Below, piece after piece: positions 7,067 to 27,407 of a stretch of DNA of 64,000 nt; within the stretch, counting starts at the first letter, position 1, and every line of letters starts with the position of its first letter. Origin of the DNA: Pseudovibrio axinellae (GTDB lineage: Bacteria > Pseudomonadota > Alphaproteobacteria > Rhizobiales > Stappiaceae); NCBI RefSeq assembly GCF_900110875.1, contig NZ_FOFM01000016.1:1-64000 (forward strand). The letters are read 5' to 3'. The translations under genes and the position numbers were made by a program. The notes below the pieces were generated by a model that saw nothing but the letters and a program-made list of their open reading frames with translations, did no database searches and was not told the DNA's origin.

Positions 7067-7142
7067 GAATCCTCTCCCCTGGATTGTTCATTAAGCATAT
7101 TCAATCATAGCTAGAAAATATAATGGATTTAATTTCGAACTG

Positions 7143-7161
7143 TTATAAGCTTTAGCTATAA
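7143..7161. promoter_or_regulatory. Possible LysR-type operator in divergent promoter region
   Basis: The imperfect inverted repeat TTATA-N9-TATAA lies just before the LysR start codon, in the 108-base gap between the divergent alkylsulfatase and regulator genes. A+T-rich interrupted dyads (T-N11-A type) are usual LysR binding sites. This is pattern-based and tentative. Confidence 0.3.
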
Positions 7162-7174
7162 GTGGGAGGCTGCA

Positions 7175-8077: not shown

Positions 8078-8132
8078 AACGCGCCACACAATTAGTGGCA
8101 TCAACTGGTTTCAAAGACCTGTCACAGACAAT

Positions 8133-8166
8133 AAAGGCGCTGCAGTCCTGGGACTGCAACGCCTTT
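8133..8166. terminator. Bidirectional terminator between lysR and speB
   Basis: The arm AAAGGCG plus TGCAGTCC pairs with GGACTGCA plus CGCCTTT, with one mismatched base pair in the middle and a 2-base apex. It sits between two genes that end towards each other (8077 plus, 8184 minus) and serves both. Confidence 0.85.
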
Positions 8167-8183
8167 ATTCATATTTTGGTTTA

Positions 8184-9050
8184 TCAGCCGTCGCTGCGTG
8201 ATGATACAGCCGCTGCCATCAGGCGATAGGTTATCTGGGCAGCTGTAAAATCCCAGGCAGCATTGCCATCTGGCGCAAGCTCTACCACATCAAGCCCAAC
8301 ACATTTGCGGCCCTTTAAAGCATGTTCGACCAAATGCAACGCCTGATAATAGCCAAGACCACCTGGAACCGGTGTTCCCGTTGCAGGCATTTGGGAAGGG
8401 TCCAGACCATCTACATCAAATGAAATGTAAACATGTTCGGGAAAATCCTCAGGCAAATCAACGGCATGAATGCCCTTGGTGACCAGTTCTTCTGCGTCAA
8501 CAAAGAAAACACCGTGCTCGTCTCTGCTGTCCATTTCTTGCTGACAAAGTGCGCGTACGCCAAACTGGGCAAGGCGAACCCCGCACTCTGCAAGAAGGTT
8601 CATGACAGAGGCATGTGAGTGCTTTTCACCTTGATAGGCAACCCGCAAATCCGCATGCGCATCAATTTGAATAATACCGATGCGCTCACCAAGTGCCCGC
8701 GCAACCCCGGAAACGGCGCCATAGGACAGGGAATGCTCACCGCCAAGCGTCACTGGGATCTTGCCTGACTTAACAGCATGCTCGGTGCGCTTTGCAAGAC
8801 GCTCCATGACCTCAGGCAGCGGACCATCGCACTCAACAGCAGGCTCGGTGAAGATCCCAAACGCACAAGGCTCGACGCCATTGCAGCCGCGTTCAAGTTC
8901 ATCACTTGCGTTTAAAATAGCCTCAGGACCATTGAGCGTACCTGAGCCATAGGAAACCGTGCGTTCAAGAGGCATTGGAATGATCGTGAACAGCGAGTTA
9001 TCTTCCTGACGTTCGCTCTGGGTTAGTTCACTTTCAAGAAAAATAGACAT
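8184..9050 (-). CDS. speB: Agmatinase (agmatine ureohydrolase)
   Basis: The 288-residue protein belongs to the arginase/agmatinase (ureohydrolase) family, which uses two Mn ions. The metal ligands are visible: GGEH at 103-106, DAHAD at 130-134 and FDVDGLD at 211-217. It would convert agmatine to putrescine and urea. It is the last gene of a minus-strand operon that begins with arginine decarboxylase, 10 bases after the upstream decarboxylase gene. This context makes agmatinase far more likely than guanidinobutyrase or formiminoglutamase. Length is normal for the family. The start at 9050 directly follows a GGAGG-type ribosome site in the short gap. Confidence 0.9.
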   Translation of the reverse strand: MSIFLESELTQSERQEDNSLFTIIPMPLERTVSYGSGTLNGPEAILNASDELERGCNGVEPCAFGIFTEPAVECDGPLPEVMERLAKRTEHAVKSGKIPVTLGGEHSLSYGAVSGVARALGERIGIIQIDAHADLRVAYQGEKHSHASVMNLLAECGVRLAQFGVRALCQQEMDSRDEHGVFFVDAEELVTKGIHAVDLPEDFPEHVYISFDVDGLDPSQMPATGTPVPGGLGYYQALHLVEHALKGRKCVGLDVVELAPDGNAAWDFTAAQITYRLMAAAVSSRSDG

Positions 9051-9060
9051 GTCGCCTCCT

Positions 9061-10236
9061 TTAGGAAAGACGGGTCAGGAAGTCATCATAGGAAAACTCA
9101 CGAATGATCTTGAGCTCGTCCCGGTCAGAGTTCCAAAGGGCAATCGCAGGCAAAGCAACACCGTTAAACGTGTTCGTTTTCACCATGGAATAATGGGCTT
9201 GATCAAGGAACGCGAAGCGATCACCAATCTTGAAGGGAACGTCGCGGGTATAGTCACCAATCACATCACCAGCCAGGCAAGAAGGCCCACCAAGGCGGTA
9301 TGTATGCCCCTGCTCTGCCTCATTTAACATGGCAGGACGATACGGTGCTTCGATCACATCAGGCATATGACAGGTTGCGGAAATATCCACGATTGCCAGG
9401 TCCATACCATTATTAGGCAGGTCCAGTACTTCTCCGATGAGTATGCCAGCATCCAATGCAACAGCTTCCCCGGGTTCCAGATAAACATCCAGACCGGTTG
9501 TTGCACGCACATCTTTGATAAATGCAATCAATGCTTCGCGGTCATAGTCAGCGCGCGTGATGTGGTGACCACCACCAAAGTTTACCCACTTCAATTGATC
9601 AAAATAGGGAGCAAGCTTGTCTTTCACAGCATTCCAGGTGCGCTCCAAAGGCTCAAAGCCCTGTTCGCACAATGTATGCATATGCACCCCATCAACACCA
9701 ATCAGAGCATCTGCTGTGAGTTGCGATACAGGGAAGCCTAGTCTGGAGCACGGTGCGCAAGGGTCGTATTTTGCAATTTCACCTTCAGAATGTTCTGGAT
9801 TGATGCGCAGTCCAACCTGCACCGGGTGATCAGCAGCTCTCACATTGGGTAAAAATCTGTCTTTTTGCTCAGGTGAGTTGAAGATCATATGATCGGAATA
9901 ACCGATGATCTCATCAATCTCACTGGCTTTGTAGCCTGCACAAAATGTAGCGAGTTCGCCGCCGTATTGTTCGCGTCCAAGACGGGCTTCATAAAGACCA
10001 GAAGCGCACGTACCGCCCAAATACTCACGTATCACTGGAGCAAGCGAAAACATGGAGAATGCTTTCAGCGCTGCAAGCACGTGAGCGCCGGAGCGATCCG
10101 CAACTTCTTTGATGACGGCGAGGTTGCGGCGCACCGCAACCTCATCAACAACAAAACAAGGGCTTGGGACGCGAGAGAGATCAAAATCCTTGAACGCTCC
10201 AGCATCACCAGCCTGTGTTTGCATCATTTCAGCCAT
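9061..10236 (-). CDS. nspC: Carboxynorspermidine/carboxyspermidine decarboxylase
   Basis: This PLP-dependent, alanine-racemase-fold decarboxylase is related to DapA/LysA and ornithine decarboxylases. It removes the carboxyl group of carboxyspermidine to give spermidine (carboxynorspermidine to norspermidine in vibrios). The PLP lysine lies in LAALKAFS near residue 56, the glycine-rich phosphate-binding loop in WVNFGGGHH, and the second active-site part in YRLGGPSCLAGD with the conserved Cys. The frame is open back to 10356, but those codons lie inside the upstream gene. I place the start at ATG 10236, 4 bases after that gene's stop, giving 391 residues, the family's usual size. The next gene makes its substrate. 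Confidence 0.9.
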   Translation of the reverse strand: MAEMMQTQAGDAGAFKDFDLSRVPSPCFVVDEVAVRRNLAVIKEVADRSGAHVLAALKAFSMFSLAPVIREYLGGTCASGLYEARLGREQYGGELATFCAGYKASEIDEIIGYSDHMIFNSPEQKDRFLPNVRAADHPVQVGLRINPEHSEGEIAKYDPCAPCSRLGFPVSQLTADALIGVDGVHMHTLCEQGFEPLERTWNAVKDKLAPYFDQLKWVNFGGGHHITRADYDREALIAFIKDVRATTGLDVYLEPGEAVALDAGILIGEVLDLPNNGMDLAIVDISATCHMPDVIEAPYRPAMLNEAEQGHTYRLGGPSCLAGDVIGDYTRDVPFKIGDRFAFLDQAHYSMVKTNTFNGVALPAIALWNSDRDELKIIREFSYDDFLTRLS

Positions 10237-16432: not shown

Positions 16433-16840
16433 ATGGACAGATTAGTTGAGTTGAATAAGGGAGTGTTTAGGCCCAGGATCACAAGGACAGGAGCGAGATA
16501 TGGAGCAAAACACAAAGACGGCGAGCGCTATTCCACTAAGGACAAGATCCGAATTGTTGTTGCAGGATTGCGTAGTGAAGTCCGTATTGCTGAGCTGTGC
16601 CGTCAGGAAGGCCCCTCACAAGGCCTTTATTATAGCTGGTTAAAGGAGTTTTTGGAGGCTGACAAAAAGCGCATTGCAGGGGATACAGCCCGTCAGGCCA
16701 ATACCATTGAGATCAAACAACTGCGTAAGGAAGCCCGCGATCTGAAAGAAGTGTTTGCAGAGCAAGCACTTGAACTGCGACTTCTCAAAAACCGTATGCT
16801 CGAGGATGGGAGGAAGACGAATGAGGTGCCCTGCCCATGA
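16433..16840 (+). CDS. IS3-family transposase OrfA
   Basis: The 135-residue protein has the OrfA helix-turn-helix (ERYSTKDKIRIVVAGLRSEV, then ELCRQEG, then YYSWLKEFLEA) and a leucine-zipper-like C-terminus (EIKQLRKEARDLKEVFAEQA). It is the DNA-binding part of an IS3-type transposase and overlaps the start of OrfB by the usual -1 arrangement (OrfB ATG at 16821). It belongs to the same element type as the truncated OrfB at 218-919. OrfB here is cut short, so this copy cannot move alone. Confidence 0.8.
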   Translation: MDRLVELNKGVFRPRITRTGARYGAKHKDGERYSTKDKIRIVVAGLRSEVRIAELCRQEGPSQGLYYSWLKEFLEADKKRIAGDTARQANTIEIKQLRKEARDLKEVFAEQALELRLLKNRMLEDGRKTNEVPCP

Positions 16841-16956
16841 GAAGCTGGAAATTATTCGCCTCGTTGAGAATTCCCATCAACCAGTCAAGCATACTCCGAA
16901 ACGTTTGGGCATTCCCCGCTCCACGTTCTATGGGTGGTATGAGCGTTATTTGTCCG
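16821..16956 (+). pseudogene. IS3-family transposase OrfB, N-terminal stub
   Basis: It starts at ATG 16821 inside the OrfA end and reads HEKLEIIRLVENSH, then RLGIPRSTFYGWYERYL, the OrfB helix-turn-helix. After about residue 45 the similarity stops and the sequence changes to an IS481-like transposase on the other strand. The whole integrase core is missing. Confidence 0.7.
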
Positions 16957-17240
16957 TCATGAAGGGCTTGCAAACAATCATCAAGCGGCAGCAACGTGTC
17001 CCTGCGAAAAGCAACACACAGGGCCTCGTCCTCCACGGACAGGACCGTGGAGCGCGGCTGTTTTGGCCCCGTGGGCAAGTCTTCCACGGAACCGCGACTT
17101 CGCCACTTCATGACCGTTTTAGGGTTGAGGCTGTATTGCTCTGCCAATTCCGAGAGGGTTCCTTTTGAGCACTGGATCGTTGTCCTAAAGGCGTGAGTCA
17201 TCTTGGCACGCCGTGTAAAACCTGTCCCACAGGTCCCTCC
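16957..17240 (-). pseudogene. IS481-like transposase, N-terminal fragment
   Basis: On the minus strand the frame reads GTLSELAEQYSLNPKTVMKW, then DLPTGPKQPRSTVLS and DTLLPLDDCLQALHD. This is the helix-turn-helix region of transposases of the IS481 type. Its C-terminal catalytic core is missing because the frame runs into the IS3 OrfB stub at about 16957. The upstream edge near 17240 is approximate. Confidence 0.6.
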
Positions 17241-17336
17241 TAAGTGACGATAGAGTGTGTAAACTAACTCCATCACTCTGCGGGACTAAACATCTAGGTC
17301 GTTTGGCATTAGCTGCAAAATGTGTCAGAGGCCGTT

Positions 17337-17950
17337 TCATGCATACAATTCAGCTGTGTAGTCGTTCCATTGGTTGGAAAATTGCAGAAACTTCATCGTG
17401 AGCAGATAGGAAACTCTGGGCCTGGCACGGAGACTTGAAACGTTCCATGATCTTTGCTTGTCGTCGCGTATGGCGATGAGAACCTTCTGCCTGATTGTGC
17501 AACCCTTTGTGCTGACGATGCTCGAGATCTGGTGCGATCTCTTTCTTCTCAGCCCATAAGAGCCAAGCTTGTCCATAATCAGAACGCGTGGCATGCCTCC
17601 GCGCTTGAATAGCTATAAAAGAAACGTTTGGTAGGGCGTGATTGCAGCAGGATATCAAGAGTATTGCCATCCACCGCACGCCACAGCCAGTAGGTTACAC
17701 CGTTAATCTTGACCACACTCTCATCTAGATGCCACTTGTCATTAGATGTTGGCTGATACCGTCTGATTTTACCAGCAAAGTGATGCCCCAACTTGTTCAC
17801 CTAATCACCGACTGCCTCATAGCTGAGTACTGTTCTCCGCGCGGCAGGGAGGTTTTCAACATCGCGCAGGCTTACCACAAATCAATGATAGCCCCAGTCC
17901 GCATAGCCAATAATGCTGCGTGGGAAATAGAAACCTTTAAGAGCAGCAAT
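17337..17950 (-). pseudogene. IS6-family (IS26-like) transposase, frameshifted
   Basis: Reading leftward, the order is ALKGFYFPRSIIGYADWGYH (the family's KGRHFP start), a stop, VSLRDVENLPAARRTVLSYE, another stop, then NDKWHLDESVVKINGVTYWL with the first Asp of the DDE triad. After that come VLIMDKLGSYG with the second Asp and, in another frame, HRQHKGLHNQAEGSHRHTRR with the Glu. Several stops and shifts make it inactive. It forms the right end of an insertion-sequence scar next to the radical SAM operon. Confidence 0.75.
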
Positions 17951-18041
17951 AGCATCAAGATTGTGCATGGGATTGATATATGCAAAATCAAGGCATTCAA
18001 TAATCTGACAAAGCCCCTTACCTTCAAGGCAGATAATCGAG

Positions 18042-18272
18042 CTATTGGTTCGTTTCCTGAAACTGCTTTTCGCGTTCTGCAATCTCCGGATAGGCATCTG
18101 TCAACAGTTTGCCGCCGACCCCGATATTATCGTAGGAATGCTCTTCGATATGAATCGTCAGGAGGTTGGCGTCCAGCCCTGTGCTTTCCTCAAAGGCTTT
18201 TGTCAGAGCGGCGACACAAGTAGCCTTTTTCTCTCTGGTAAGACGCGGCGAATAAACAACGATGTGTGGCAT
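18042..18272 (-). CDS. Tautomerase-superfamily protein (4-oxalocrotonate tautomerase-like)
   Basis: This 76-residue protein begins with Met-Pro (MPHIVVYSP). After methionine removal the N-terminal proline is the catalytic base of the tautomerase superfamily. A conserved-looking central part is LLTIHIEEHSYDNIGVGGKL. Small tautomerases act as oligomers on keto-enol substrates. It is the last gene of the radical SAM operon, 42 bases after the second SPASM enzyme, so it may be cotranscribed. Whether it takes part in peptide modification or is a bystander cannot be told from sequence. Confidence 0.75.
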   Translation of the reverse strand: MPHIVVYSPRLTREKKATCVAALTKAFEESTGLDANLLTIHIEEHSYDNIGVGGKLLTDAYPEIAEREKQFQETNQ

Positions 18273-18314
18273 GGCATTTTCCTTTTCTGTCGTGAGATTG
18301 TTTTGTTAAGAAGC

Positions 18315-19310
18315 TCAAGCACTCAGTTTATCATGTATGAGCCAGCAATAGGGATCCTCTGCCATCATATCTTGGTCCACCGCCCAGGCGGCGGCTCTGC
18401 ACCCACCACATTCCCATTTGAAAGAGCAAGAGGCACACCCTCCCTTAACATCGCGTTGGTGCAGTGCCTTGATGTGAGAGGAGTTTGACCAGATCTCGCC
18501 AAAGGGGGCATCCTTCAAATTTCCCAATGACAACGGAAACATCACGCAAGGTGTCACGTCGCCCTCAGCAGTGACGCATGCAATACTGATCCCGGCCTGA
18601 CAGCCTCCCCGGCACGCGTCAGCGTCAGGTGCGAGTGAAGCCAGTCCTGAAGAATGGGCGGACAGATACATATCGGGATAATCAGCCTTGGCTGCCAGCC
18701 ATGTCTGCAATAAGGCGTGCGCTGTGTCAGGCTCCAAGCCGTCGCTCAAGGCACCGCGTCCGGTGGGTATGAACTGAGAGAGGTTGAACCCGTCAACCCC
18801 GAGCTGCGCACAAAGCTCCAACATATCGGGCAGCAGGTGCGCATTGCGACGCATAGCTGTGAAGCAGATGTGGGTTTTCAGCCCTACCTCCAAGGCGATT
18901 TTTACGGCCTCCAACGCCTTTTGAAAGGAACCGGGTCCGCGAATAGCATTGTGCGCCTCTTGGGTACCGTCAATGCTCACCTGTAATCGTGAGAGACCGG
19001 CTTGCTTCAGTTTGTCCGCCGTCTTTTCCGTCAAAGGATATCCGTTGGTGCTGGTGCCAACAGTCATGTTGAGGCTGCGGGCATATGCCACCAACTCTAT
19101 CAGATCGCGGCGCAGCAATGGTTCTCCGCCGGAAAATGCAACGTCGACGACACCAACATCATTCATTTGCCACAAAATTTCTTTTGCGCGATTGGTAGTA
19201 TAGCCCTTGTCACCCTCCTTGTCCGCATTGGAGGAACAGTGAATGCAGGACAGATTGCAATGATTGCTTAAAATGAAAACCACATGCAAAGGATAGGACG
19301 GTTTAAACAT
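18315..19310 (-). CDS. Radical SAM/SPASM peptide-modifying enzyme (second)
   Basis: The 331-residue enzyme has the radical SAM cluster motif CNLSCIHC (C18, C22, C25) and the SAM-binding FSGGEP. The C-terminal SPASM region is rich in cysteines: CRGGCQAG, then CVTAEGDVTPCVMFPLSLGN, then CASCSFKWECGGCR and a last Cys in PYCW. Enzymes of this build carry auxiliary Fe-S clusters and make crosslinks, epimerizations or other changes in ribosomal peptides. I chose ATG 19310 over GTG 19316 because gagagg lies at good spacing. The gene starts 9 bases after the B12-type radical SAM gene stops. It is similar in layout to the first SPASM enzyme of the operon but not a copy. Family is certain; the reaction is not. 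Confidence 0.9.
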   Translation of the reverse strand: MFKPSYPLHVVFILSNHCNLSCIHCSSNADKEGDKGYTTNRAKEILWQMNDVGVVDVAFSGGEPLLRRDLIELVAYARSLNMTVGTSTNGYPLTEKTADKLKQAGLSRLQVSIDGTQEAHNAIRGPGSFQKALEAVKIALEVGLKTHICFTAMRRNAHLLPDMLELCAQLGVDGFNLSQFIPTGRGALSDGLEPDTAHALLQTWLAAKADYPDMYLSAHSSGLASLAPDADACRGGCQAGISIACVTAEGDVTPCVMFPLSLGNLKDAPFGEIWSNSSHIKALHQRDVKGGCASCSFKWECGGCRAAAWAVDQDMMAEDPYCWLIHDKLSA

Positions 19311-19319
19311 AACCACCTC

Positions 19320-20771
19320 TCAAAAAAAGGATTGCAGGATACGGCCTTTGACCGATTTCAGATCCGGTTGCATGCCGCAGGTTTCATAGAACTCTTCAAC
19401 AAATTGCAGATTTTGAGCGATAAACTTGCGCAGCCGTTGCGAAGCATTGCAAATATCTTCATAACTGGAGCCGGTGCTTCTGTGAGTGATCGTGTCTGAA
19501 AATAAGACAGCCTCTGCCAGCGTCGCCCGAGAGAACTTCGAGTAATCTTCAAAGTCCTTAAAGCGTGGCTCCACGCCAAAGCGGGTCGGATCCTCATGAA
19601 TAGGCGTGTGCGGAAACAGGATCATCGGACTTACCCAACGCGGAATGCCGCCGACCTTCATGGTTTCAAGGATCAATTGCTCCGTATCACGCAGCGCAGC
19701 TTCACTCTCACCGGGAAGGCCGACCATCCACCATGTAAACGGCTCAACCTTTGCCTGGACCGCCTCGGAAATACTGAGCACCACCTCTTCGCGGTCGAGA
19801 TGGCGGTTGTTGATCCGCGCCACATCGTAAGATCCGGTCTCGACGCCAAAATCCACACTGGCCAGTTCACAACACGCCGCTAGGGCAGCGTACCCCTCAT
19901 ATCCATAGCTTTCTGGATGGGCAAAAATGTTGAGGTGAGCGGGCCGAATATCGCGGCGGACCAACTCCTCACTCAGTTCGATGAGCTTGACATTTCCGCC
20001 AACAAAAAAATTGTCTTGAATAGTAAAGCGCGTAATGCCCTCGCTCATCAGCGCTGCAACCTGGTCCGCAATACGCCTTGCGGAATGAAACATCAGCTTA
20101 CGCCGGCCCTGAAGGCGGCCAATGACGGGCTCAACGCACCAGGCGCATTTGAATGGACATGCACCGCGTGTAGTGGAAATTGCACCCGCATCTGGTCTCA
20201 GTGAGCGGGGTTTGAGTACGGAGTAGCGATAAACCGGAAGATCATCCATCTCTTCCAGCACGTGAGGCGCCACGCTTTCTCCCCTGTTTGTCACCAGTCC
20301 CGGCACGTCTTCCGTGACTTTTCCAGACAGGGCAACCTGCTGGCATATTGAAAGCAGCGCGTGTTCTGCCTCACCCTTGATGACCCCATCCACATAGGGT
20401 GCATTGGCACTGGCGATTTCTTCAGCAAACATCGTAGCGTGTTGTCCGCCGATATAGACCGGGACACGAGGCAGCGCAGCCTTTACAAGACGGGCCACCT
20501 CAAGTGCGCCAGAGCTGAAATGAACCCAGTTGAGACCAATAGCTATGACTATTGGATCCTCTTTCAGGATGAACGCTTTTACATCCTCCTCCTCAAACCC
20601 ATAATGCAGCGCTAAGGGCACGTGCAGGCCATGCACCTCAAAGCCGTGCGCTTCCAGCCACGCGGCATTAGCAAGCAAACCAAGCCCAAATTGCTTATCA
20701 TCCAGACATGGTGAGGTTTGGTTAAAGGAAGTTGGCGGTTGGATAAATAAGACTCGATCATTTTGCACCAT
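19320..20771 (-). CDS. B12-binding-type radical SAM enzyme
   Basis: The 483-residue protein has an N-terminal cobalamin-binding-like Rossmann domain (about residues 1-150; IGGQHATMFAEE, KGEAEHALL). A radical SAM domain with CPFKCAWC (C205, C209, C212) follows. The C-terminal part contains FGVETGSYDVARINNRHLDR and MVGLPGE, usual in this class. Such enzymes perform methylations at unactivated carbons or ring rearrangements, although not all members use B12. The frame is open to TTG 20789, but I prefer ATG 20771, 4 bases after the PqqD-like gene stops. Its place between PqqD-like and SPASM genes suggests action on the same peptide. Confidence 0.88.
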   Translation of the reverse strand: MVQNDRVLFIQPPTSFNQTSPCLDDKQFGLGLLANAAWLEAHGFEVHGLHVPLALHYGFEEEDVKAFILKEDPIVIAIGLNWVHFSSGALEVARLVKAALPRVPVYIGGQHATMFAEEIASANAPYVDGVIKGEAEHALLSICQQVALSGKVTEDVPGLVTNRGESVAPHVLEEMDDLPVYRYSVLKPRSLRPDAGAISTTRGACPFKCAWCVEPVIGRLQGRRKLMFHSARRIADQVAALMSEGITRFTIQDNFFVGGNVKLIELSEELVRRDIRPAHLNIFAHPESYGYEGYAALAACCELASVDFGVETGSYDVARINNRHLDREEVVLSISEAVQAKVEPFTWWMVGLPGESEAALRDTEQLILETMKVGGIPRWVSPMILFPHTPIHEDPTRFGVEPRFKDFEDYSKFSRATLAEAVLFSDTITHRSTGSSYEDICNASQRLRKFIAQNLQFVEEFYETCGMQPDLKSVKGRILQSFF

Positions 20772-20775
20772 AGCC

Positions 20776-21063
20776 TCAACCAAACTCAATGAGATTACGC
20801 CTGTTCAGCTCTTGCAAAAAAGAAAGGACTGAACTTCTCAGCACTTCTTCCGTGTGGTCACTTTCCTGCAACAGCAGTTTGCCTCCCAGATGAACAACTT
20901 CATCAATTTCTTTGCCATCACACTGATCAAAGATTGCCTTACCGCTGCTGGTGACAATGTGAAGCTGGTCGGTTTTGGGGTGATAGAGCAGAAAGTTGCC
21001 TTCCTCCTCGGTTCGGCAGCGCACGCCCTCCGTGTGGTGCACTGTTGTAAAATGCTCGCTCAA
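20776..21063 (-). CDS. PqqD-like peptide chaperone (RiPP recognition element)
   Basis: The 95-residue protein has the PqqD pattern: a beta-rich N-terminus (EEGNFLLYHPKTDQLHIVTS), GKAIFDQCDGK and a helical C-terminus. PqqD-type proteins bind the leader of a ribosomal peptide and present it to radical SAM partners. The start is judged to be TTG 21063: ribosome site gggagg lies 7 bases before it, and TTGA overlaps the stop of the upstream SPASM gene. This means translational coupling. The frame extends to 21084, but those codons precede the ribosome site. Its presence strongly supports a RiPP pathway here. Confidence 0.85.
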   Translation of the reverse strand: MSEHFTTVHHTEGVRCRTEEEGNFLLYHPKTDQLHIVTSSGKAIFDQCDGKEIDEVVHLGGKLLLQESDHTEEVLRSSVLSFLQELNRRNLIEFG

Positions 21064-22109
21064 CTTCTTGCCTCCCTTTTGCAACTGGGACCGGAGCCGA
21101 ACTCAGGCATATCGGGTTTGATCCAGCAGGTTGGATCGCCAGCATACGCATCTCCATACCAGGCATAACTGGCTGCACGGCAACCCCCACATTTCTCCTT
21201 GTGCTCACACACAGAGCAGTTGCCTGAGCTGATATTTTCCCGGGAACGGATCTTGTGAAGTTCAGGTGCACTGCGCCAGATTTCCGTAAAGGTCTGCTCT
21301 TTCAGGTTGCCAACAGCAACAGGCAGGACAACGCAAGGAGTTACGTCCCGGTCTACAGTGATGCGGCAGTGGGTATATCCAGCCCCGCATCCTTTGTAGG
21401 GATCTGCCTCAGCTTCTGGGAGCAGTAAGCCAACCCGGCAATCATGCCAGTCAATTTCCAGCTTGCCTCTCCACCTCTCACCTGCCTTGATCCAGGCCTG
21501 CAAAAGCGTACCAAGCTCCTGCGGAGAGGGCATCAGGTCAACGCCGCCCCGAGTGGTATAAACATACTCCGTGAGGTTGACTTTCTCCGCACCAAGGCGG
21601 TGCGACAGCGCAATTATTTCCTGAGCTTCGCTCAGATTTGGCCTCATCGGTGTATAGTTAATGGTCACCCGCACACCGGCTTCAGTCAGGTGTTGGGCTG
21701 CTGCACAGGCCTTGTGAAAAATACCGGGTAGCCCGCGGATTGCATCATGTGTTTCGGCAGTCGCGCCATCTAAACTAACGCTCACATTGGAAACCCCAAG
21801 TTTCTTCAGTCGCCTCGCCACCTCTGGTGTCACTAGTATGCCATTGGTCGCAAATGTAACTCGCATACCTAGAGAGGTAGCGTGACCAATCAATTGCTCC
21901 CAGTCCGAACGTAACAGCACCTCACCGCCAGAAAGCGCAAGAATGAATACACCGGCTTCTGCAAGCTGATCAATCAGCTCCAGCGCATCCTCAAGCGGCC
22001 AGTAGTCTGGCCCTCTACCAAATAAGGCATCGGAGTAGCAATGCACGCAGCGTGCGTTGCAATCCAGTGTTGTTTCCCAAACAACGTAAAGGGGAGAAGA
22101 TAGCTTCAT
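21060..22109 (-). CDS. Radical SAM/SPASM peptide-modifying enzyme (first)
   Basis: The 349-residue enzyme has CNARCVHC (C17, C21, C24), the LSGGE SAM-binding motif and a SPASM C-terminus (GCGAGYTHCRITVDRDVTPC, then CSVCEHKEKCGGCR and CW). It should form a C-C, C-O or similar link, or epimerize, in the product of the gene just upstream. It is the first enzyme gene after the NTF2-like gene, 81 bases away, with a hairpin in the gap. The ribosome site gaggt lies 7 bases before the ATG. Its stop overlaps the PqqD-like start. Nothing is missing from the known motifs. Confidence 0.9.
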   Translation of the reverse strand: MKLSSPLYVVWETTLDCNARCVHCYSDALFGRGPDYWPLEDALELIDQLAEAGVFILALSGGEVLLRSDWEQLIGHATSLGMRVTFATNGILVTPEVARRLKKLGVSNVSVSLDGATAETHDAIRGLPGIFHKACAAAQHLTEAGVRVTINYTPMRPNLSEAQEIIALSHRLGAEKVNLTEYVYTTRGGVDLMPSPQELGTLLQAWIKAGERWRGKLEIDWHDCRVGLLLPEAEADPYKGCGAGYTHCRITVDRDVTPCVVLPVAVGNLKEQTFTEIWRSAPELHKIRSRENISSGNCSVCEHKEKCGGCRAASYAWYGDAYAGDPTCWIKPDMPEFGSGPSCKREARS

Positions 22110-22133
22110 CGCGAAACCTCAATCAAGAGGGTT

Positions 22134-22155
22134 CAACGGCGCCGAAACGCCGTTG
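22134..22155. promoter_or_regulatory. Hairpin between putative RiPP precursor gene and first maturase gene
   Basis: caacggcg (22134-22141) and cgccgttg (22148-22155) form a GC-rich stem around ccgaaa, extendable through flanking agagg/cctct. There is no long U-run, so it may act as a partial terminator or mRNA-stabilizing 3' end. That would give more of the upstream gene product than of the enzymes, as is common after RiPP precursor genes. Confidence 0.6.
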
Positions 22156-22190
22156 TCCTCTACCAATTATTGGAGATAGGTTTGTGCAGA

Positions 22191-22718
22191 TTAGGCAACC
22201 ATCCACGCCATGGCAGAAAGAGAGCCAAGATCATCAATTGATAGTGCACCAACAGGAGCCAATTCAGTTTTGCCCGGGGTTCCCACATGAATGTCGAGGA
22301 AACTGATACGGCCATCCTGGAGGCGGAAGTTATGGGTGAAAGGCGCTTGAAGGCCTTCTCCGTTTTTGTTGATGATGTAGCGCAGACCACTTACTACAAT
22401 ATGCTCATCATTCTTGGCGTTGGCCACATTTACCTTAGACAAGTTGGTTGCCAACATGCCATCCACGCCTCTGGCGCGGTTTTGGTAGAACCCCGCGATT
22501 TCATCATGTTTCGCATAGTTCTTTTCGCCAATAGACTCTTTGCCGTGAATGGAAAGTTTTCCGCCTGAATGCCACAGTTCCATAATTGCGTCAGTATCAA
22601 ACTTCTCGCCCTTCACTGCATGAGCGTCCATTTCCTTTACTGCGGCAAAGTATTTTTCAATAACACTCATATTACTTAAAGGCGTCAAGCTAGTTTTATT
22701 GAGCTCGCGTATATCCAT
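22191..22718 (-). CDS. NTF2/SnoaL-fold protein with C-terminal tail, candidate RiPP precursor
   Basis: This 175-residue protein starts at ATG 22718 after gagga. Residues about 15-150 resemble the NTF2-like/SnoaL fold (helix VIEKYFAAVKEMDAHAV, DTDAIMELWHSGGKLSIHGK, then strands ending GRISFLDIHVG). After the fold comes a tail of about 25 residues ending LSIDDLGSLSAMAWMVA, which an ordinary NTF2 enzyme would not need. There is no cysteine in the protein, which excludes thioether rings. It heads an operon of two SPASM enzymes, a B12-type radical SAM enzyme and a PqqD-like protein. I infer that the fold is a leader and the tail the modified core. Alternatively it is an NTF2-like enzyme or binding protein in a small-molecule pathway. 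The gene is certain; the precursor role is inference. Confidence 0.8.
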   Translation of the reverse strand: MDIRELNKTSLTPLSNMSVIEKYFAAVKEMDAHAVKGEKFDTDAIMELWHSGGKLSIHGKESIGEKNYAKHDEIAGFYQNRARGVDGMLATNLSKVNVANAKNDEHIVVSGLRYIINKNGEGLQAPFTHNFRLQDGRISFLDIHVGTPGKTELAPVGALSIDDLGSLSAMAWMVA

Positions 22719-22800
22719 AACTGTATTCCTCTATTTCACTTGTTTTTGCTAATAAAAGGAAGTTGCCATGAAACTGAAACACAATATTTACTAGGCTTAC

Positions 22801-22814
22801 TTGACGTAAATCAA
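22801..22814. promoter_or_regulatory. FNR/Anr-type box upstream of the radical SAM operon
   Basis: ttgacgtaaatcaa matches the FNR/Anr/FixK consensus TTGAY-N4-ATCAA with both half sites intact. It lies 82 bases before the start codon of the first gene of the minus-strand operon, inside a noncoding region. This suggests activation under low oxygen, which would suit oxygen-sensitive Fe-S enzymes. Confidence 0.65.
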
Positions 22815-23149
22815 TTGACTGCCTGTTATATTTCGACTTAATGCATGCCATTCATCAATAGAACCTGGGTTAAAATGATATTTTTCAAAATATCTAAACT
22901 TATGCAGGACTTAGCAGGTGAGTGAAATAATCAAGGACGCGTAAATATGTAATTTGAATACTGTCTGATGAGAAAACATACTTTCATCAATAAATTTGTT
23001 GTTAAGCTTCCAATCACCGACTGCTTCCCCCAATAGCCAGACGGCGCATTTAATACAATCTGTTCGCTTCAGGTAACTCAACATCGACGGCTAATACTAG
23101 TTTTCTGCAGTGGCCTCATCGGCGAAGGTAACCATAAGCTTTTCTTGCA
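22815..23149. other. AT-rich intergenic region
   Basis: No gene is visible. It holds upstream promoter sequence of the radical SAM operon and ends at insertion-sequence debris. Confidence 0.4.
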
Positions 23150-23199: not shown

Positions 23200-23870
23200 A
23201 GTTGAGTGGTCCAGATTGAAAGTTAGCGCATTAGTGGCCTACTCATATTTGATAGTGCGCCAGAACCGTTCGATAAAAGCATTATCGCGCTTGAGGACAT
23301 AGGTGAAATCTATACTGGTGAACTGGTAGCCTTAGTCGGCGTTGAAAATTTCTGGCTTGCCGTGTCTTGAGAGCGCCTCTTCGACAGCTTCGATGCAACA
23401 GGCTACCTCCAAGGTGATTGATAACCACCAGCCCAGTACTTTGTGCGAGTACCAGTCAATGATAGCGACCAAATAGGTGAAGCCCTTTGCCATGGGAATT
23501 TCGGAAATGTCGGTGGCTCATACTAGGTTGGGTCTTAAAACCACAACATCACGCAGCAGATACTGGCAGATTTCATGTCCCGAAGCCGCTAGTAAACACT
23601 GCTTTTGGATACTCTCAGGGCTTTGGCATGCAGCCGTTTGATTTCGACTTCAGGTTCTTGTTTAGCCTGTTTATCAGCCCCAAACACATCAGGTATAGCC
23701 GCAACGGCCTGCCCTTTGCGTTGCATGATCTGGTTTGCGTGCACATTAAAGTCCTGAGCCAATTCACTCAAGGTCTTCTCTCCGCGAATTGCAGCAAACG
23801 CCACTTTCGCTTTAAAAGCCGGGCTATGATTCCAGCGCGGACGTCTGCTCAAGGTGGTCTCCTGTTCTTG
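23200..23870 (-). pseudogene. IS3-family element remnant (OrfA and degraded OrfB)
   Basis: OrfA reads leftward from 23852: RWNHSPAFKAKVAFAAIRGE, then KTLSELAQDFNVHANQI. This is the helix-turn-helix of the IS911/IS2-like branch, ending early. The OrfB integrase core follows with at least three in-frame stops: ATDISEIPMAKGFTYLVAII, then DWYSHKVLGWWLS, NAFIERFWRTIKYE. It is inactive. Together with the scars at 16.4-17.95 kb it brackets the radical SAM operon. Confidence 0.75.
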
Positions 23871-24022: not shown

Positions 24023-24589
24023 TTACCCACCAAATCCGCGACCTGATCTGGACCCAAAACCACCTCGAGACGCGATGGAAGTTCTGGTTTGCACTTTTGG
24101 CGGCTTAGACAGTTTTTTCGTCGCTTTTTTGGGAATGCGGGCCGATCGGCTGTTGGAAGACATGTCGAGAAGGTATCCGCCGCTCGTATAAAAATGGCGG
24201 CGATTGCGATCCGGATAAACAGGGCGAACGCGATACTTCCAGTCAGACAAACCTTGCGTTGCATTTGCAATAAAGTATCCAGCCGCGATTGGAACAAAGT
24301 AGCTGCTGTACGAGGTTCCATTCCCATGCGCTGGAGCACATGCATACCGTCCATGCTGATCTTCGCAAAGGCGGTTGGTATTGTAGCGCGGTGCGGAGGT
24401 ATTCTCTGCTTCTTTGGCAATCTTAAAGGCCGCGGTGCATTCATTCACGCTATATTGCTCAGCAGAAACACATTGCTCCTGATCGACAAAAACCTGCCCA
24501 TCTGCCTTTTCCTCGAACTGATCACATGCAGCGAGCGACACCCCGGCTGTTGCCATCACGACGAGTTTTAGAGGTCCTGAACGTTTCAT
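24023..24589 (-). CDS. DUF1190 lipoprotein (YjfM/YgiB-like)
   Basis: The start ATG 24589 (MKRSGPLKLVV) is set by a strong ribosome site (ggaggaaa) 4 bases before it; the longer frame to 24622 overlaps the upstream gene. Residues 1-22 form a lipoprotein signal ending LAAC, so the mature protein is lipidated and faces the periplasm. The middle carries cysteines (CVSAEQYSVNECTAAF) and the DUF1190 pattern of a Tyr/Pro-rich region. The C-terminus is Ser/Arg/Gly-rich (GGFGSRSGRGFGG), probably disordered. It is the last gene of a four-gene minus-strand operon like E. coli yjfK-yjfL-yjfM. Role: probably envelope stress; exact function unknown. Confidence 0.8.
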   Translation of the reverse strand: MKRSGPLKLVVMATAGVSLAACDQFEEKADGQVFVDQEQCVSAEQYSVNECTAAFKIAKEAENTSAPRYNTNRLCEDQHGRYACAPAHGNGTSYSSYFVPIAAGYFIANATQGLSDWKYRVRPVYPDRNRRHFYTSGGYLLDMSSNSRSARIPKKATKKLSKPPKVQTRTSIASRGGFGSRSGRGFGG

Positions 24590-24606
24590 CTGGTTTCCTC
24601 CTAGGC

Positions 24607-25029
24607 TCAATAGGTCATGCAAGCGGCGTTCAAAAGTCCCACGCTGATCGACACACCACCAAGGTGAATACCAATTGCGCTCTCACCCTTTTCGATTCTG
24701 CTGGAGACCTGCGGGTAAAACGCGCGGAACACCAAGAATGTGATGATTTGCAGGATGCCAGCAACAAGGCCCCACACAACGAAATCAATCAGGCCAACAG
24801 AGTTGGCAGCAGCACTTGCGATCGGAATAGAAAAGCCAATAACTGTGCCTGTGAGCGAGAGGGATGCAGCACTGTTGTTTTCTTTAATGAGTGCCATTTC
24901 CTTATGCGGAGTGACAAACTTGTAGATCGTCACGAAAATCACAAGCATCACAACAGCGACTATAAAATAGGCTAGAAAAGGCACTAAGCCAAATAAGGAA
25001 TTTTGAAGTTCAGCCAAAATATTCTCCAT
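24607..25029 (-). CDS. DUF350 membrane protein (YjfL-like)
   Basis: About 140 residues with four predicted membrane helices: LVPFLAYFIVAVVMLVIFVT, then LTGTVIGFSIPIASAA, LIDFVVWGLVAGILQIITFL, and a C-terminal helix GVSISVGLLNAACM. This fits the DUF350 family, inner membrane proteins of unknown function. I use ATG 25029 (MENILAEL) because the first three codons of the longer frame overlap the upstream gene. Neighbours are DUF2491 upstream (6-base gap) and the DUF1190 lipoprotein downstream. Confidence 0.82.
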   Translation of the reverse strand: MENILAELQNSLFGLVPFLAYFIVAVVMLVIFVTIYKFVTPHKEMALIKENNSAASLSLTGTVIGFSIPIASAAANSVGLIDFVVWGLVAGILQIITFLVFRAFYPQVSSRIEKGESAIGIHLGGVSISVGLLNAACMTY

Positions 25030-25034
25030 CAAGA

Positions 25035-25682
25035 TCAAATATGCAATTCGTGTTGTGAAAGACTACGCCCGAGCATAAAGGCCACACTGCGCTCGTTTGT
25101 GCCTTCCACCTCTTCCATGTTCACCAGCAACATCTCGTCTTTGCCGTCGCTTAGCTCTCGTGCGAACAACATGGCGCTTTGGAAAATTTTACGTCCAGAT
25201 TTACCAGCACGATCTTCACTCACGCTCTCCCAGTACTGCATAGGCTCTTCTGGCTGGTCAGAGCTGTCGAACCATGCCCGCTCAAACAGCACGTCGCCCT
25301 GAGAACTGGAGAGTGAAAAGGTTTTTTGGCAGATGGATCGGCGGATTTCGCGCCATTGGTGATCTGTACTGGGGTACTGAACATCGTAATAGGACCACAG
25401 CATAATCTCATCAACACGCTCATCGGTGACGCCATCCCCGCCTTGAATTTGCAAGAGAAGGGTGTCGTCATCTGGATAGAAGCGGTGCAAATGTGACTGC
25501 TCGCCAAGATCGCAATGGCCTTGCGCAACGATTGAAAACGTCAGCTGTGGCACTTCGATCAAACTGTCCTGAGGCAGCAACTTGACGGAGATGCTGTCAA
25601 CAGTAACAGCCCGACCAATGGTAACGCCAAGCACTTCAGGTAATTCAGTTTTTGCTTTTGATTTACGCCAGAACCGCAGCAT
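25035..25682 (-). CDS. DUF2491 protein (YjfK-like)
   Basis: The 215-residue soluble protein is of the DUF2491 type. It has a short hydrophobic-basic start (MLRFWRKSK), then a beta-rich body with PEVLGVTIGRAVTVDS and an acidic region with YYDVQYP, as in YjfK. The start ATG 25682 lies inside the end of the channel gene (20-base overlap), so translation is probably coupled. Function is unknown. In E. coli the homologous gene lies beside a PspA paralog and a glutathionylspermidine synthetase-like ligase, and both occur divergently in this window. Confidence 0.78.
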   Translation of the reverse strand: MLRFWRKSKAKTELPEVLGVTIGRAVTVDSISVKLLPQDSLIEVPQLTFSIVAQGHCDLGEQSHLHRFYPDDDTLLLQIQGGDGVTDERVDEIMLWSYYDVQYPSTDHQWREIRRSICQKTFSLSSSQGDVLFERAWFDSSDQPEEPMQYWESVSEDRAGKSGRKIFQSAMLFARELSDGKDEMLLVNMEEVEGTNERSVAFMLGRSLSQHELHI

Positions 25683-26781
25683 CAAGCTTCTCCATTAAAC
25701 GAGACCATGTCTCCGGCTCAAGACGCTGCTGAGCCACATAATAGACGGTGGTACCGCCCATCAAATCGCGTGGAAACGGCTTGAATGACACATCATCCGC
25801 TCCATTTTGGCCTACCGCAAGCAAAACGGCATTAACCGAAAGAAGTTGCTGCTCAACTTCTGCAGCCAGATATCCGCGTGCCCCTTCCAGAACACCAGAA
25901 TAGATGGTGGCGTTGTGCGTTGCACTGCTCAATGCCATGATAACCCGGCTTGCGCCTGGATCCTGAGCAGCACGTACAAGCGTTTCTGTTGCACTCGAAA
26001 CCACTGCTTCCACATGTGCTAGTTTGGTTGCACGGCGGGCTGTGTCGCGGTCCCCGAAATAGGCAGCCACATGTACATTGTCGGAGAGCTCACGGATAGC
26101 AAGGCAGGTGTTAAACGTTTCCGCATCGCTCTCGGTGTAAACGATGATCTTTTCTGCATGCTCCACCGCAGCCCGTTTCAGTGTTTCCAGCGTATCGAGC
26201 CGGTCCCCACGAACATAACGAACCCCTTCAGGCACAGTGATATCAGCGGAGGTGGCCAGCAACACAATCTTCGTGTCGTTGTCTCTACCTGCAACCAGAT
26301 TGGTTATCATGCGTTCGGTTCGATCACTGTGATACCCGATGATTACCGTGGCACCGCTGAGGCTTTTGAAGTTACCTCTGCCATCTACCATTCGTCTTAT
26401 CCCTTGAACGAGTGAACTGGTGAGCTTGCTCAACACAGCAGTGAAAATAAGAAGTGCGCCGGGCACAAACCAGATTGCCGAAATAAGGCGGCCAGCTTCT
26501 GTCGCTGGCGACAAGTCACCATACCCAACTGTGGAGGCTGTGGTTGAGGCGAAATATAAAAATACGACGAGATCGGAGGTCAGGCCTGTCTCGCCCGCCC
26601 AGGAAAAAAGAGCCCACGAGATCAGCAGATAAGCGCCGATCAACGAAAATAGGACCCACAAACGCAGTTCGACGAGGTGGTCATAGAACTTGGAGTAAAT
26701 CCGTTGAATAACTGGCACTGCTAAAACTTCCCGGTCCCCACGCACAATTAAATAGACGATAAGCGCCTTTGTGGCAGACAA
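25663..26781 (-). CDS. Potassium channel with TrkA-N (RCK) domain
   Basis: The 372-residue protein has two membrane helices (LWVLFSLIGAYLLISWALF and WFVPGALLIFTAVLSKL) around a pore loop with the potassium selectivity filter TVGYGD. A cytoplasmic TrkA-N/RCK Rossmann domain follows (SGATVIIGYHSDRTERMITN), then a C-terminal part. It should form tetrameric, ligand-gated K+ channels of the 2TM type. It heads the minus-strand half of a divergent membrane-stress locus, an arrangement also seen with PspA/ATP-grasp modules in other proteobacteria. The E. coli yjf operon lacks it. Family is certain; its link to stress is inferred from context. Confidence 0.88.
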   Translation of the reverse strand: MSATKALIVYLIVRGDREVLAVPVIQRIYSKFYDHLVELRLWVLFSLIGAYLLISWALFSWAGETGLTSDLVVFLYFASTTASTVGYGDLSPATEAGRLISAIWFVPGALLIFTAVLSKLTSSLVQGIRRMVDGRGNFKSLSGATVIIGYHSDRTERMITNLVAGRDNDTKIVLLATSADITVPEGVRYVRGDRLDTLETLKRAAVEHAEKIIVYTESDAETFNTCLAIRELSDNVHVAAYFGDRDTARRATKLAHVEAVVSSATETLVRAAQDPGASRVIMALSSATHNATIYSGVLEGARGYLAAEVEQQLLSVNAVLLAVGQNGADDVSFKPFPRDLMGGTTVYYVAQQRLEPETWSRLMEKLDAAVLA

Positions 26782-26966
26782 TCAAAAATTAATCCTATGA
26801 TTGATAGGCAATTATATTGACTTTGCAAATCAGCGAAAGCAATTATTCGACTAAACTACGAATATTTCCTGTTTTAGGCATCTATCGCCTTCCGAAGGTT
26901 GTAGATTAAGGCTCGCAACCTATTTAAGCCCTTTAACCTACATGGTTTTGGATTGGAGAATTGATA

Positions 26967-27407
26967 ATGGCTCAGCCGGTTAGCCACTGGACTGCATCAA
27001 GCCTGGTAGGGGCGCTGCAAGCCTCACCAGAAACATCCTCAGAAGAGATGGAGTTTGTCGCTGCGCCCGAGACAAAGGACGTTTTTGAGGTGCACATGAA
27101 GAGCGCGGGTGATGTTGTTCTTTTTGTAGTTGTCAGTGCAGCACAAATCACTACCTCAACCATTCTTTGGGGACGGGATGAGCTGGACGATCCGCAAGCA
27201 TTTGAGGCACTTATGCTGCGTTCACACCGCACCCTCATGCCACTCAGTGCTCTCTCAATCGGCAAGATTGGTGACCGTGAATACCATGAGTTGTTCGGCA
27301 CCATGTCTTCCACCTCACCTCTTGCTGAGATCATTGAAGAGTTCAAAGTGATCGCAGAAAACGCAATCGAACTGGCCCGTGAACTCGGTCCAAAAGCCAG
27401 CGCATAA
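26967..27407 (+). CDS. DUF2170 protein (YjfI-like)
   Basis: The 146-residue protein begins MAQPVSHWTASSLVGALQ, the DUF2170 pattern, followed by an alpha/beta body (VEVHMKSAGDVVLFVVVSAA-like strands) and an amphipathic helix. The start ATG 26967 has ggag 8 bases before it. It is first of three plus-strand genes (DUF2170, PspA, ATP-grasp ligase), matching yjfI-yjfJ-yjfC of E. coli. The promoter must lie in the 185-base gap to the divergent channel gene. Molecular function unknown. Confidence 0.8.
   Translation: MAQPVSHWTASSLVGALQASPETSSEEMEFVAAPETKDVFEVHMKSAGDVVLFVVVSAAQITTSTILWGRDELDDPQAFEALMLRSHRTLMPLSALSIGKIGDREYHELFGTMSSTSPLAEIIEEFKVIAENAIELARELGPKASA

What the first reader, a model, noticed from the sequence alone, without database searches (positions are those of the whole stretch)
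18042..22718. Candidate RiPP operon with an NTF2/SnoaL-fold leader and three radical SAM enzymes
The operon carries, in order, an NTF2-like protein with a C-terminal extension, a SPASM radical SAM enzyme, a PqqD-like recognition protein, a B12-type radical SAM enzyme, a second SPASM enzyme and a tautomerase. PqqD plus SPASM enzymes is a strong sign of ribosomal peptide modification, yet no short precursor ORF is present. The only candidate substrate is the folded NTF2-like protein. Large folded leaders are known from nitrile-hydratase-like and Nif11-like precursors; an NTF2-like leader with this enzyme set is one I do not recognise as a characterised class. Genes overlap or are a few bases apart, so they act together.
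Basis: partly seen in the sequence, partly recalled or inferred. Interest (0 to 1): 0.88.

Follow-up and report, generated by a model that had tools for sequence, protein, structure and literature searches.

The report
Radical-SAM cassette with tail-bearing NTF2 protein
A compact, apparently oxygen-regulated and mobile six-gene cassette in distantly related bacteria probably modifies the unchanging last nine amino acids of a folded carrier protein, making one fixed, cofactor-like product rather than a variable antibiotic peptide.

Summary
The operon is real: NTF2-like protein, SPASM enzyme, PqqD-like protein, B12-type radical SAM enzyme, second SPASM enzyme, tautomerase (18042-22718, minus strand; Pseudovibrio). 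The gene order recurs in an Indioceanicola plasmid, a Rubrivivax MAG, an Opitutaceae MAG (no tautomerase) and four other Pseudovibrio (one with frame breaks, one decayed).

The tail proves the most constant part: the last nine residues, LSAMAWMVA, are identical in 7 of 7 aligned homologs, although Pseudovibrio and the other lineages are 56-58% identical, and all six degenerate codons vary. This resembles mycofactocin's precursor, not antimicrobial peptides.

New: an Fnr-type box precedes the first gene in 7 of 7 loci with that gene whole and is broken in the decayed copy; similarity among Pseudovibrio copies ends near the cassette edges, so in the stretches held no linked precursor, peptidase or exporter is shared.

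Best explanation (0.62): the PqqD-like protein and the radical SAM enzymes turn the tail of the folded NTF2 protein into one fixed modified structure under low oxygen. No chemistry is shown. A tetrapyrrole rival stays open, since the SPASM enzymes score best against AhbD/NirJ-type families.

The parts
18015..22996 (-). Block of DNA shared with other Pseudovibrio carriers; similarity ends here while flanks differ: operational limits of the cassette
   Evidence: blastn: L007 and L009 both align over window 22996-18015 at 88.4% and 87.2%; L008 over 22763-18052; L012 also ends at 22996. The only other L007 match is 68 bp in transposase-like sequence. On the downstream side L009 holds only about 130 further bases
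22801..22814 (-). Fnr-type box TTGATTTACGTCAA, 96 bp before the NTF2 start codon
   Evidence: Only match to TTGAYN4RTCAA in the 64-kb window; the same box stands at -95/-96 or -69/-70 in 7 of 8 loci, broken in the decayed one; other boxes in this genome lie by ccoN, hemN, pyruvate formate-lyase
22191..22718 (-). NTF2/SnoaL-fold protein, 175 aa: proposed folded substrate
22194..22232 (-). C-terminal tail, residues 163-175 (12 of 13 invariant); LSAMAWMVA (167-175, bases 22194-22220) identical in 7 of 7 homologs: proposed modification site
21060..22109 (-). SPASM radical SAM enzyme 1, 349 aa; CX3CX2C at 17/21/24 and eight SPASM-region Cys invariant in 6 of 6 rows
20776..21084 (-). PqqD-like protein (probable peptide-binding recognition element), probable start about 21063
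   Evidence: Pfam PqqD 33.6 bits, cut-off 23.4; start judged from L006/L010/L011
19320..20789 (-). B12-binding radical SAM enzyme, 489 aa as listed; true start probably about codon 7
18315..19316 (-). SPASM radical SAM enzyme 2, 333 aa; sister of SPASM1 (83/87) in a 26-row tree
18042..18272 (-). Tautomerase of the DmpI/4-OT family, 76 aa, Pro-2 kept in 5 of 5 rows; no match in L011 and L012

Best explanation
The cassette makes one fixed, chemically modified structure out of the C-terminal tail of the NTF2-fold protein. Low oxygen (through an Fnr/FixK-type regulator at the box before the first gene) switches it on. The PqqD-like protein docks the folded NTF2 protein to the two SPASM enzymes. 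These and the B12-type enzyme then rework the invariant LSAMAWMVA tail. Since the tail has no Cys and no Tyr, the likely chemistry is oxidation, decarboxylation, C-C bonding or C-methylation around Trp172, the two Met and the C-terminal Ala, not thioether or literal PQQ/mycofactocin chemistry. The tautomerase acts late, on an enol/keto or quinone-like group, or in using the product. The product is either kept on the protein (an enzyme or carrier with a built-in cofactor; slightly preferred because no peptidase or exporter belongs to the cassette) or clipped off by a host peptidase as a small cofactor. Shown: gene content, co-inheritance, invariant tail, conserved box. Inferred: induction by low oxygen, modification, its order, its chemistry, the fate of the product.
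For: Tail: the last 9 residues are identical in 7 of 7 homologs, the longest invariant run in the protein (82 of 175 columns are invariant overall), and 6 of 6 degenerate codons among the nine vary. Between the window and the three other lineages, the other five cassette proteins keep 0-5 of their last nine. Co-inheritance: NTF2-SPASM-PqqD-B12-SPASM in this order in L006, L007, L008, L009, L010 and L011 as in the window; within the genus the same 5 of 16 genomes hold the NTF2 and B12 genes; they decay together in G009. Substrate by exclusion: cassette edges, no convincing conserved short ORF nearby. The PqqD-like protein passes Pfam's cut-off. Fe-S Cys motifs of both SPASM enzymes kept in 6 of 6 rows. 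Tail predicted unstructured, pLDDT under 50 from residue 149. Fnr-type box in 7 of 8 loci. Parallel: mycofactocin's precursor also has an almost invariant C-terminus (PMC3023750, passages).
Against: No direct proof of any modification. The SPASM enzymes score highest against tetrapyrrole enzymes (AhbD 230.8 and 213.6 bits, NirJ2 205.3 and 198.3), above peptide enzymes (GeoRSP 166.4 and 164.6, MftC 154.7 and 154.5), all below cut-offs; in the tree they fall, weakly (85/67), with the haem-type clade and a GDL-peptide enzyme, apart from MftC and PqqE. The four lineages are in effect two groups: the three outside Pseudovibrio are 78-83% identical to each other in the NTF2 protein, and among those three the B12 enzyme and the PqqD-like protein also keep 8-9 and 6-8 of their last nine residues. 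The NTF2 domain itself is well conserved, so it may have a function of its own. Low pLDDT may only reflect the shallow alignment (6 rows). The tautomerase is not found in L011. Two of the lineages are MAGs.
Confidence: 0.62

Rival explanations
1. The true substrate is a short peptide encoded elsewhere in the genome. The NTF2-like protein and the tautomerase are late enzymes or a binding protein for the product.
For: NTF2/SnoaL folds are commonly enzymes (one search lists ketosteroid isomerases, epoxide hydrolases, TerC); mycofactocin and PQQ precursors are short and easily missed.
Against: The Pseudovibrio copies share a block whose edges leave no room for a linked precursor; no convincing conserved short ORF in up to 3 kb of flanks; the invariant C-terminal tail would have no explanation.
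Confidence: 0.13
2. Tetrapyrrole route: the two SPASM enzymes are NirJ/Ahb-like and make an unusual haem-like cofactor under low oxygen; the NTF2 protein, with four invariant His, binds it, with tail Met or His as ligand.
For: Best NCBIfam scores for both SPASM enzymes are AhbD, TIGR04053 and NirJ2; weak grouping with the haem-type clade (85/67); Fnr-type control as for hemN; relatives lie beside nitrite reductase or near cobA on other plasmids.
Against: All haem-family scores are far below cut-off (best 230.8 against 500); none of the six genes matches a known siroheme-modifying partner; PqqD-like proteins are, from general knowledge, peptide binders; TIGR04347/TIGR04053 genes themselves occur beside an annotated 'rSAM-partnered candidate RiPP'.
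Confidence: 0.13
3. Classic folded-leader RiPP: the NTF2 domain is only a leader and the tail is a variable core released as an antimicrobial or signal peptide.
For: Gene set (PqqD-like plus SPASM) is RiPP-like; large leaders resembling a nitrile hydratase subunit are known from proteusins (PMC8326336, passages).
Against: The core does not vary in 7 of 7 homologs; no exporter, peptidase or immunity gene is seen to travel with the cassette.
Confidence: 0.05
4. The tail is conserved for another reason (degradation signal, docking onto the PqqD-like protein or an SPASM enzyme) and the enzymes modify a residue inside the NTF2 domain or another protein.
For: A short hydrophobic C-terminus can serve as a protease signal, and radical SAM enzymes also mature folded enzymes (both general knowledge, no call).
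Against: Nine strictly fixed residues including Trp and two Met exceed what such signals usually need (general knowledge).
Confidence: 0.07

Closest known systems
Mycofactocin (MftA-MftB-MftC)
   Same: PqqD-type protein plus SPASM enzyme; substrate invariant at its extreme C-terminus; sporadic distribution, once on an archaeal plasmid (PMC3023750 and PMC7491314, passages)
   Different: MftA is short with a Val-Tyr core; here the carrier is a 175-aa folded protein without Tyr in the tail; a B12 enzyme and a second SPASM enzyme are added; no mftE/mftD/mftF-like gene among the six; MftC cut-off not met
Proteusins and Nif11-type RiPPs (large leaders)
   Same: Large protein-like leader with radical SAM enzymes (proteusin: PMC8326336, passages; Nif11 recalled)
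   Different: Leader fold is NTF2; tail invariant, not variable
Aminopyruvatide (apy) cluster, ApyD
   Same: B12-type radical SAM enzyme acting next to a peptide C-terminus; NF050148 is the second best NCBIfam match of the B12 enzyme (78 bits, cut-off 750)
   Different: apy uses a P450 and an MNIO; ApyD makes beta-methyltyrosine (PMC11117315, abstract and passages); none of these partners is among the six genes
GeoRSP system
   Same: SPASM enzyme plus separate PqqD-family chaperone; matches for both kinds of protein
   Different: Scores 166.4/164.6 and 28.2 bits against cut-offs 400 and 100
NirJ / AhbC / AhbD haem-modifying enzymes
   Same: Best family scores for both SPASM enzymes
   Different: Well below cut-offs; own sister pair in the tree; no tetrapyrrole partner gene among the six

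Membership tests
RiPP pathway (general) | Ribosomal precursor encoded with modifying enzymes | tested here: inconclusive
   NTF2 protein with invariant tail is the only candidate seen; modification not testable here
RiPP pathway (general) | Recognition protein (PqqD-like/RRE) | tested here: met
   Pfam PqqD 33.6 bits, cut-off 23.4; binding itself not tested
RiPP pathway (general) | Leader removal by a peptidase, or export, encoded with the precursor | tested here: not met
   No such gene among the six shared genes or in the shared block; a host peptidase is not excluded
Mycofactocin | MftC at or above curated cut-off (TIGR03962, 265 bits) | tested here: not met
   154.7 and 154.5 bits
PQQ | PqqE at or above cut-off (TIGR02109, 381.35 bits) | tested here: not met
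   149.5 and 137.3 bits; no Tyr in the tail
GeoRSP | TIGR04303 and TIGR04302 at or above cut-off | tested here: not met
   166.4 and 164.6 against 400; 28.2 against 100
Proteusin / Nif11 precursors | Nitrile-hydratase-like or Nif11-type leader domain | tested here: not met
   Only SnoaL_2 found in Pfam, nothing in NCBIfam, both at E 1 or better
Proteusin / Nif11 precursors | Conserved leader, variable core | tested here: not met
   Last nine residues invariant in 7 of 7
Sactipeptide / ranthipeptide | Cys in the modified region | tested here: not met
   No Cys in residues 149-175 of any of the 7 homologs
Haem d1 / alternative haem enzymes (NirJ, AhbC, AhbD) | Curated cut-offs of TIGR04051, TIGR04055, TIGR04545, TIGR04546 | tested here: not met
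   Best 230.8 bits against 500
NTF2/SnoaL fold | NTF2-like alpha+beta fold | tested here: met
Fnr-type regulon | Conserved TTGAYN4RTCAA upstream | tested here: met
   7 of 8 loci; the eighth is decayed; binding not testable here

The most novel reading that the evidence does not exclude
An enzyme or electron carrier with a self-borne cofactor: under low oxygen, three radical SAM enzymes turn the last nine residues of an NTF2-fold protein into a fixed, Trp-based prosthetic group that swings into its own NTF2 pocket. The whole trait is packed in a 5-kb cassette that has moved between alpha- and betaproteobacteria and possibly Verrucomicrobiota.
Probability: 0.33. Interest if true: 0.9.

Novelty: new variant of a known kind. 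Interest (0 to 1): 0.74.

Why it matters
Mycofactocin was first recognised from a precursor with an invariant C-terminus beside a SPASM enzyme. Here the same signature sits on the tail of a folded 175-aa protein, with an Fnr-type box upstream, in a self-contained mobile unit. If confirmed it would add a new precursor architecture and possibly a new redox group, and show that genome mining limited to short precursor ORFs misses such systems. It is directly testable with one co-expression and mass-spectrometry experiment.

Tried and rejected
Chance or annotation artefact: rejected, as gene order recurs in other lineages. Variable-core RiPP: tested by tail comparison, disfavoured.

Nearby short precursor: all-against-all comparison of 1519 stop-to-stop frames (12 aa or more) from up to 3 kb of flanks (only 159 bases downstream in L009 and 2020 in L008; hits within Pseudovibrio were set aside) gave dozens of weak cross-lineage hits, mostly between frames of the GC-rich loci at unlike positions. 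The strongest (L007 against L011, E 4.9e-9) is a pair of response-regulator genes, on opposite strands. One weak hit lies at a shared position: antisense frames directly before the NTF2 gene in L010 and L011 (51 and 65 aa, 29% over 41 aa, E 8e-4); printed out, they show no clear common motif. A very short, poorly conserved peptide could be missed.

Tail motif in viral contigs: one hit, at the end of a 19-residue stop-to-stop frame; no cassette protein has a match better than E 0.07 on the 7.4-kb stretch held, so it is taken as chance. Relatives of the NTF2 protein: none in phage records at E 0.01, none among the candidates in viral contigs. PDB by sequence: no match for the NTF2 profile at E 1, for the B12 enzyme at E 0.01; PqqD-like protein only an unrelated E 0.89.

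Wider taxon samples (1 of 385; 1 of 300; 1 of 286; 1 of 81; 1 of 249, in each case only the genome the search was centred on) gave no new member. Origin of the SPASM enzymes: the 26-row tree groups SPASM1 and SPASM2 as sisters (83/87) and puts them weakly (85/67) with the haem-type clade and a GDL-peptide enzyme; long branches are flagged, and no AhbD or GeoRSP reference was available for it. In one search my start guesses cut the PqqD rows of L007 and L009 and the B12 row of L009 to a few residues; the invariant-column counts for those two proteins are not used. The TGA that one search reports in the B12 gene of G008 lies just before the probable true start.

Other Fnr-type boxes: 5 of 26 boxes lie within ORFs of 150 aa or more. 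I passed 20 hand-picked ORFs beside 17 of the 25 other boxes to NCBIfam: 5 had no match at E 1e-10, and several (LysR, TetR-like, P-type ATPase, AbrB-type membrane protein, chemotaxis) are not typical Fnr targets.
Full report

Relatives. Homologs of the NTF2 protein: 5 of 101 genomes in the sample of relatives, all of the own genus (G000, G006, G008, G009, G015); 1 of 72,556 plasmid records, Indioceanicola profundi, 58% identity; genome contigs gave five loci: P. ascidiaceicola, P. denitrificans, an uncultured Pseudovibrio, a Rubrivivax MAG and an Opitutaceae MAG. The first three are the same contigs as those of G015, G006 and G008 by length and coordinates. Samples of the class (385), the order of the Rubrivivax MAG (300), the class of the Opitutaceae MAG (286), the genus of the Rubrivivax MAG (81) and the phylum (249) showed only the centre genome each time. 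The gene is rare and patchy.

Cassette. tblastn of the six window proteins on seven other loci: NTF2, SPASM1, PqqD, B12 enzyme and SPASM2 are in the same order in L006, L007, L008, L009, L010 and L011. The tautomerase follows in L006, L007, L008, L009 and L010, and has no match in L011. L008 (a draft genome) shows frame breaks in three radical SAM genes, errors or decay. L012 (G009) is a decayed copy: NTF2 with a stop and altered end, SPASM1 broken, B12 gene cut at residue 145, no match for SPASM2 at its place or for the tautomerase. In the genus, the same 5 of 16 genomes hold the NTF2 and B12 genes. In the class sample both were found only in the own genome (limit E 1e-20 for the B12 enzyme). 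DNA similarity between the window and L007 or L009 runs over 22996-18015 and stops, and with L008 over 22763-18052 (L009 holds only about 130 bases beyond, so the downstream edge rests on L007 and L008). So the trait is a self-contained block of about 5 kb with differing flanks. It lies on a plasmid in Indioceanicola, near conjugation genes (TraL, TraE, TraK) in the Rubrivivax MAG, near an ArdC-type gene in the Opitutaceae contig, and between transposase remnants in the window. The Indioceanicola (alpha), Rubrivivax (beta) and Opitutaceae MAG copies are nearer each other (NTF2 78-83%) than to Pseudovibrio (56-58%). This fits transfer, with the caution that the 15.7-kb Opitutaceae contig could be misbinned.

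The tail. In seven aligned homologs, 82 of 175 columns are invariant. The longest invariant run is the last nine residues, LSAMAWMVA, and 12 of the last 13 are invariant. If invariant columns were placed at random, nine of nine at the end would have P 8.5e-4; this ignores relatedness and the choice of stretch, so it is descriptive only. The DNA is not frozen: 6 of 6 degenerate codons of the nine vary, as does the stop codon. Between the window and the three other lineages the last nine residues of the five other proteins share 0-5. Among the three mutually closer lineages, however, the B12 enzyme keeps 8-9 and the PqqD-like protein 6-8 of nine, so the contrast rests on the deeper split; and SPASM2 differs in length at its end, so its count is not position by position. 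Haft and colleagues reported the like for the mycofactocin precursor: seven invariant residues among the last eight, extreme diversity upstream (PMC3023750, passages). The difference is that the part before the tail is a conserved folded protein here.

Regulation. A TTGAYN4RTCAA box stands 95-96 bp (Pseudovibrio) or 69-70 bp (Indioceanicola, Rubrivivax, Opitutaceae) before the NTF2 start in 7 of 8 loci; the eighth is the decayed copy, whose box is broken. It is the only match in the 64-kb window and one of 26 in 5.13 Mb, against 14 for the reversed control pattern; at that rate one in 400 bp is expected with a chance of about 0.002. I examined 20 hand-picked ORFs beside 17 of the 25 other boxes. 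Curated cut-offs are passed by, among others, ccoN, hemN, cytochrome c oxidase subunit II, uroporphyrinogen-III methyltransferase and a UbiD-family decarboxylase; pyruvate formate-lyase, a FixK/FnrL-like regulator and FeoB match below cut-off, two of them on ORFs cut by the end of the stretch; 5 of 20 had no match at E 1e-10, others are not typical of Fnr, and 5 of 26 boxes lie within long ORFs. The box is therefore most likely an Fnr/FixK-type site. That fits oxygen-sensitive enzymes; induction itself was not tested.

Enzymes. Both SPASM proteins keep the CX3CX2C motif and eight further Cys of the SPASM region in 6 of 6 rows; the B12 enzyme's Cys 211/215/218 are kept in the 5 rows read properly. 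SPASM1 and SPASM2 are sisters (83/87) in a 26-row tree, so one probably arose from the other before the cassette spread. Their best NCBIfam scores are to tetrapyrrole enzymes and TIGR04053, with GeoRSP, MftC and PqqE lower, all below cut-offs, and the tree puts them weakly (85/67) with the haem-type clade and a GDL-peptide enzyme. By PDB sequence search the best matches are PqqE and SkfB. Thus family placement alone does not decide between peptide and tetrapyrrole, and leans to the latter. The PqqD-like protein, which passes its cut-off, and the invariant tail tip the balance to peptide. The tail has no Cys or Tyr, so thioether and literal PQQ- or mycofactocin-type chemistry are excluded.

Mechanism proposed. 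Low oxygen induces the operon (inferred from the box). The PqqD-like protein brings the folded NTF2 protein to the SPASM enzymes (inferred). These and the B12 enzyme modify the flexible LSAMAWMVA tail (inferred). The tautomerase acts on the product or its use (inferred). The product stays on the protein or is clipped by a host peptidase. Absence of a dedicated peptidase slightly favours the first, but mycofactocin can be released by an unknown peptidase when MftE is missing (PMC7491314, passages). ApyD gives a precedent for a B12 enzyme acting next to a peptide C-terminus (PMC11117315, abstract and passages).

Literature. Searches of the held library: SnoaL with PqqD, radical SAM and precursor (0 papers); radical SAM with RiPP and NTF2 (1 paper, on an Antarctic cyanobacterium, listing seen); Pseudovibrio with RiPP and radical SAM (1 paper, on Microbulbifer, listing seen); radical SAM, PqqD, SnoaL-like, at least two (44 papers, none of the 10 listed holds SnoaL-like); RiPP recognition element, radical SAM and SnoaL (0); nuclear transport factor 2, radical SAM, peptide modification, at least two (39 papers, none of the 8 listed holds the first term); radical SAM, FNR, PqqD, anaerobic, RiPP, at least four (18 papers, 8 listed, one of them with FNR, on PqqE). 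No description of this system was found. Most papers of subscription journals are outside that library.

Noticed in passing
L010 4315-9278: Beside the Rubrivivax MAG cassette: genes with ORC-CDC6-like, PRTase-CE and SIS/HAD matches, which look like a biological-conflict module.
   Followed up: no
L006 14779-17876: Downstream of the Indioceanicola cassette: two TIR-type proteins and a SIR2 family protein, often seen in defence islands.
   Followed up: no
window 16433-17679 and 23589-23852: Transposase remnants (HTH_Tnp_1, DDE_Tnp_IS240, some below cut-off) on both sides of the cassette.
   Followed up: partly
window 24023-26781: Operon-like run of DUF1190, DUF350, DUF2491 and an ion-channel/TrkA_N protein, followed at 26961-27407 by a DUF2170 protein on the other strand.
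   Followed up: no
L057 747-4086: A haloarchaeal plasmid carries TIGR04347 and TIGR04053 SPASM genes beside a gene annotated 'Htur_1727 family rSAM-partnered candidate RiPP', so a family grouped here with haem enzymes also has a peptide-type neighbour.
   Followed up: no
L012 (G009) 6454-9078: Decayed copy of the cassette in a near relative: NTF2, SPASM1 and B12 genes and the Fnr-type box are damaged together, while the PqqD-like gene still matches over its length.
   Followed up: yes
L023 228-2336: Another Fnr-type box of this genome sits between a MauG/MbnH-like di-haem gene and a FixK/FnrL-like regulator gene, all matches below cut-off.
   Followed up: no
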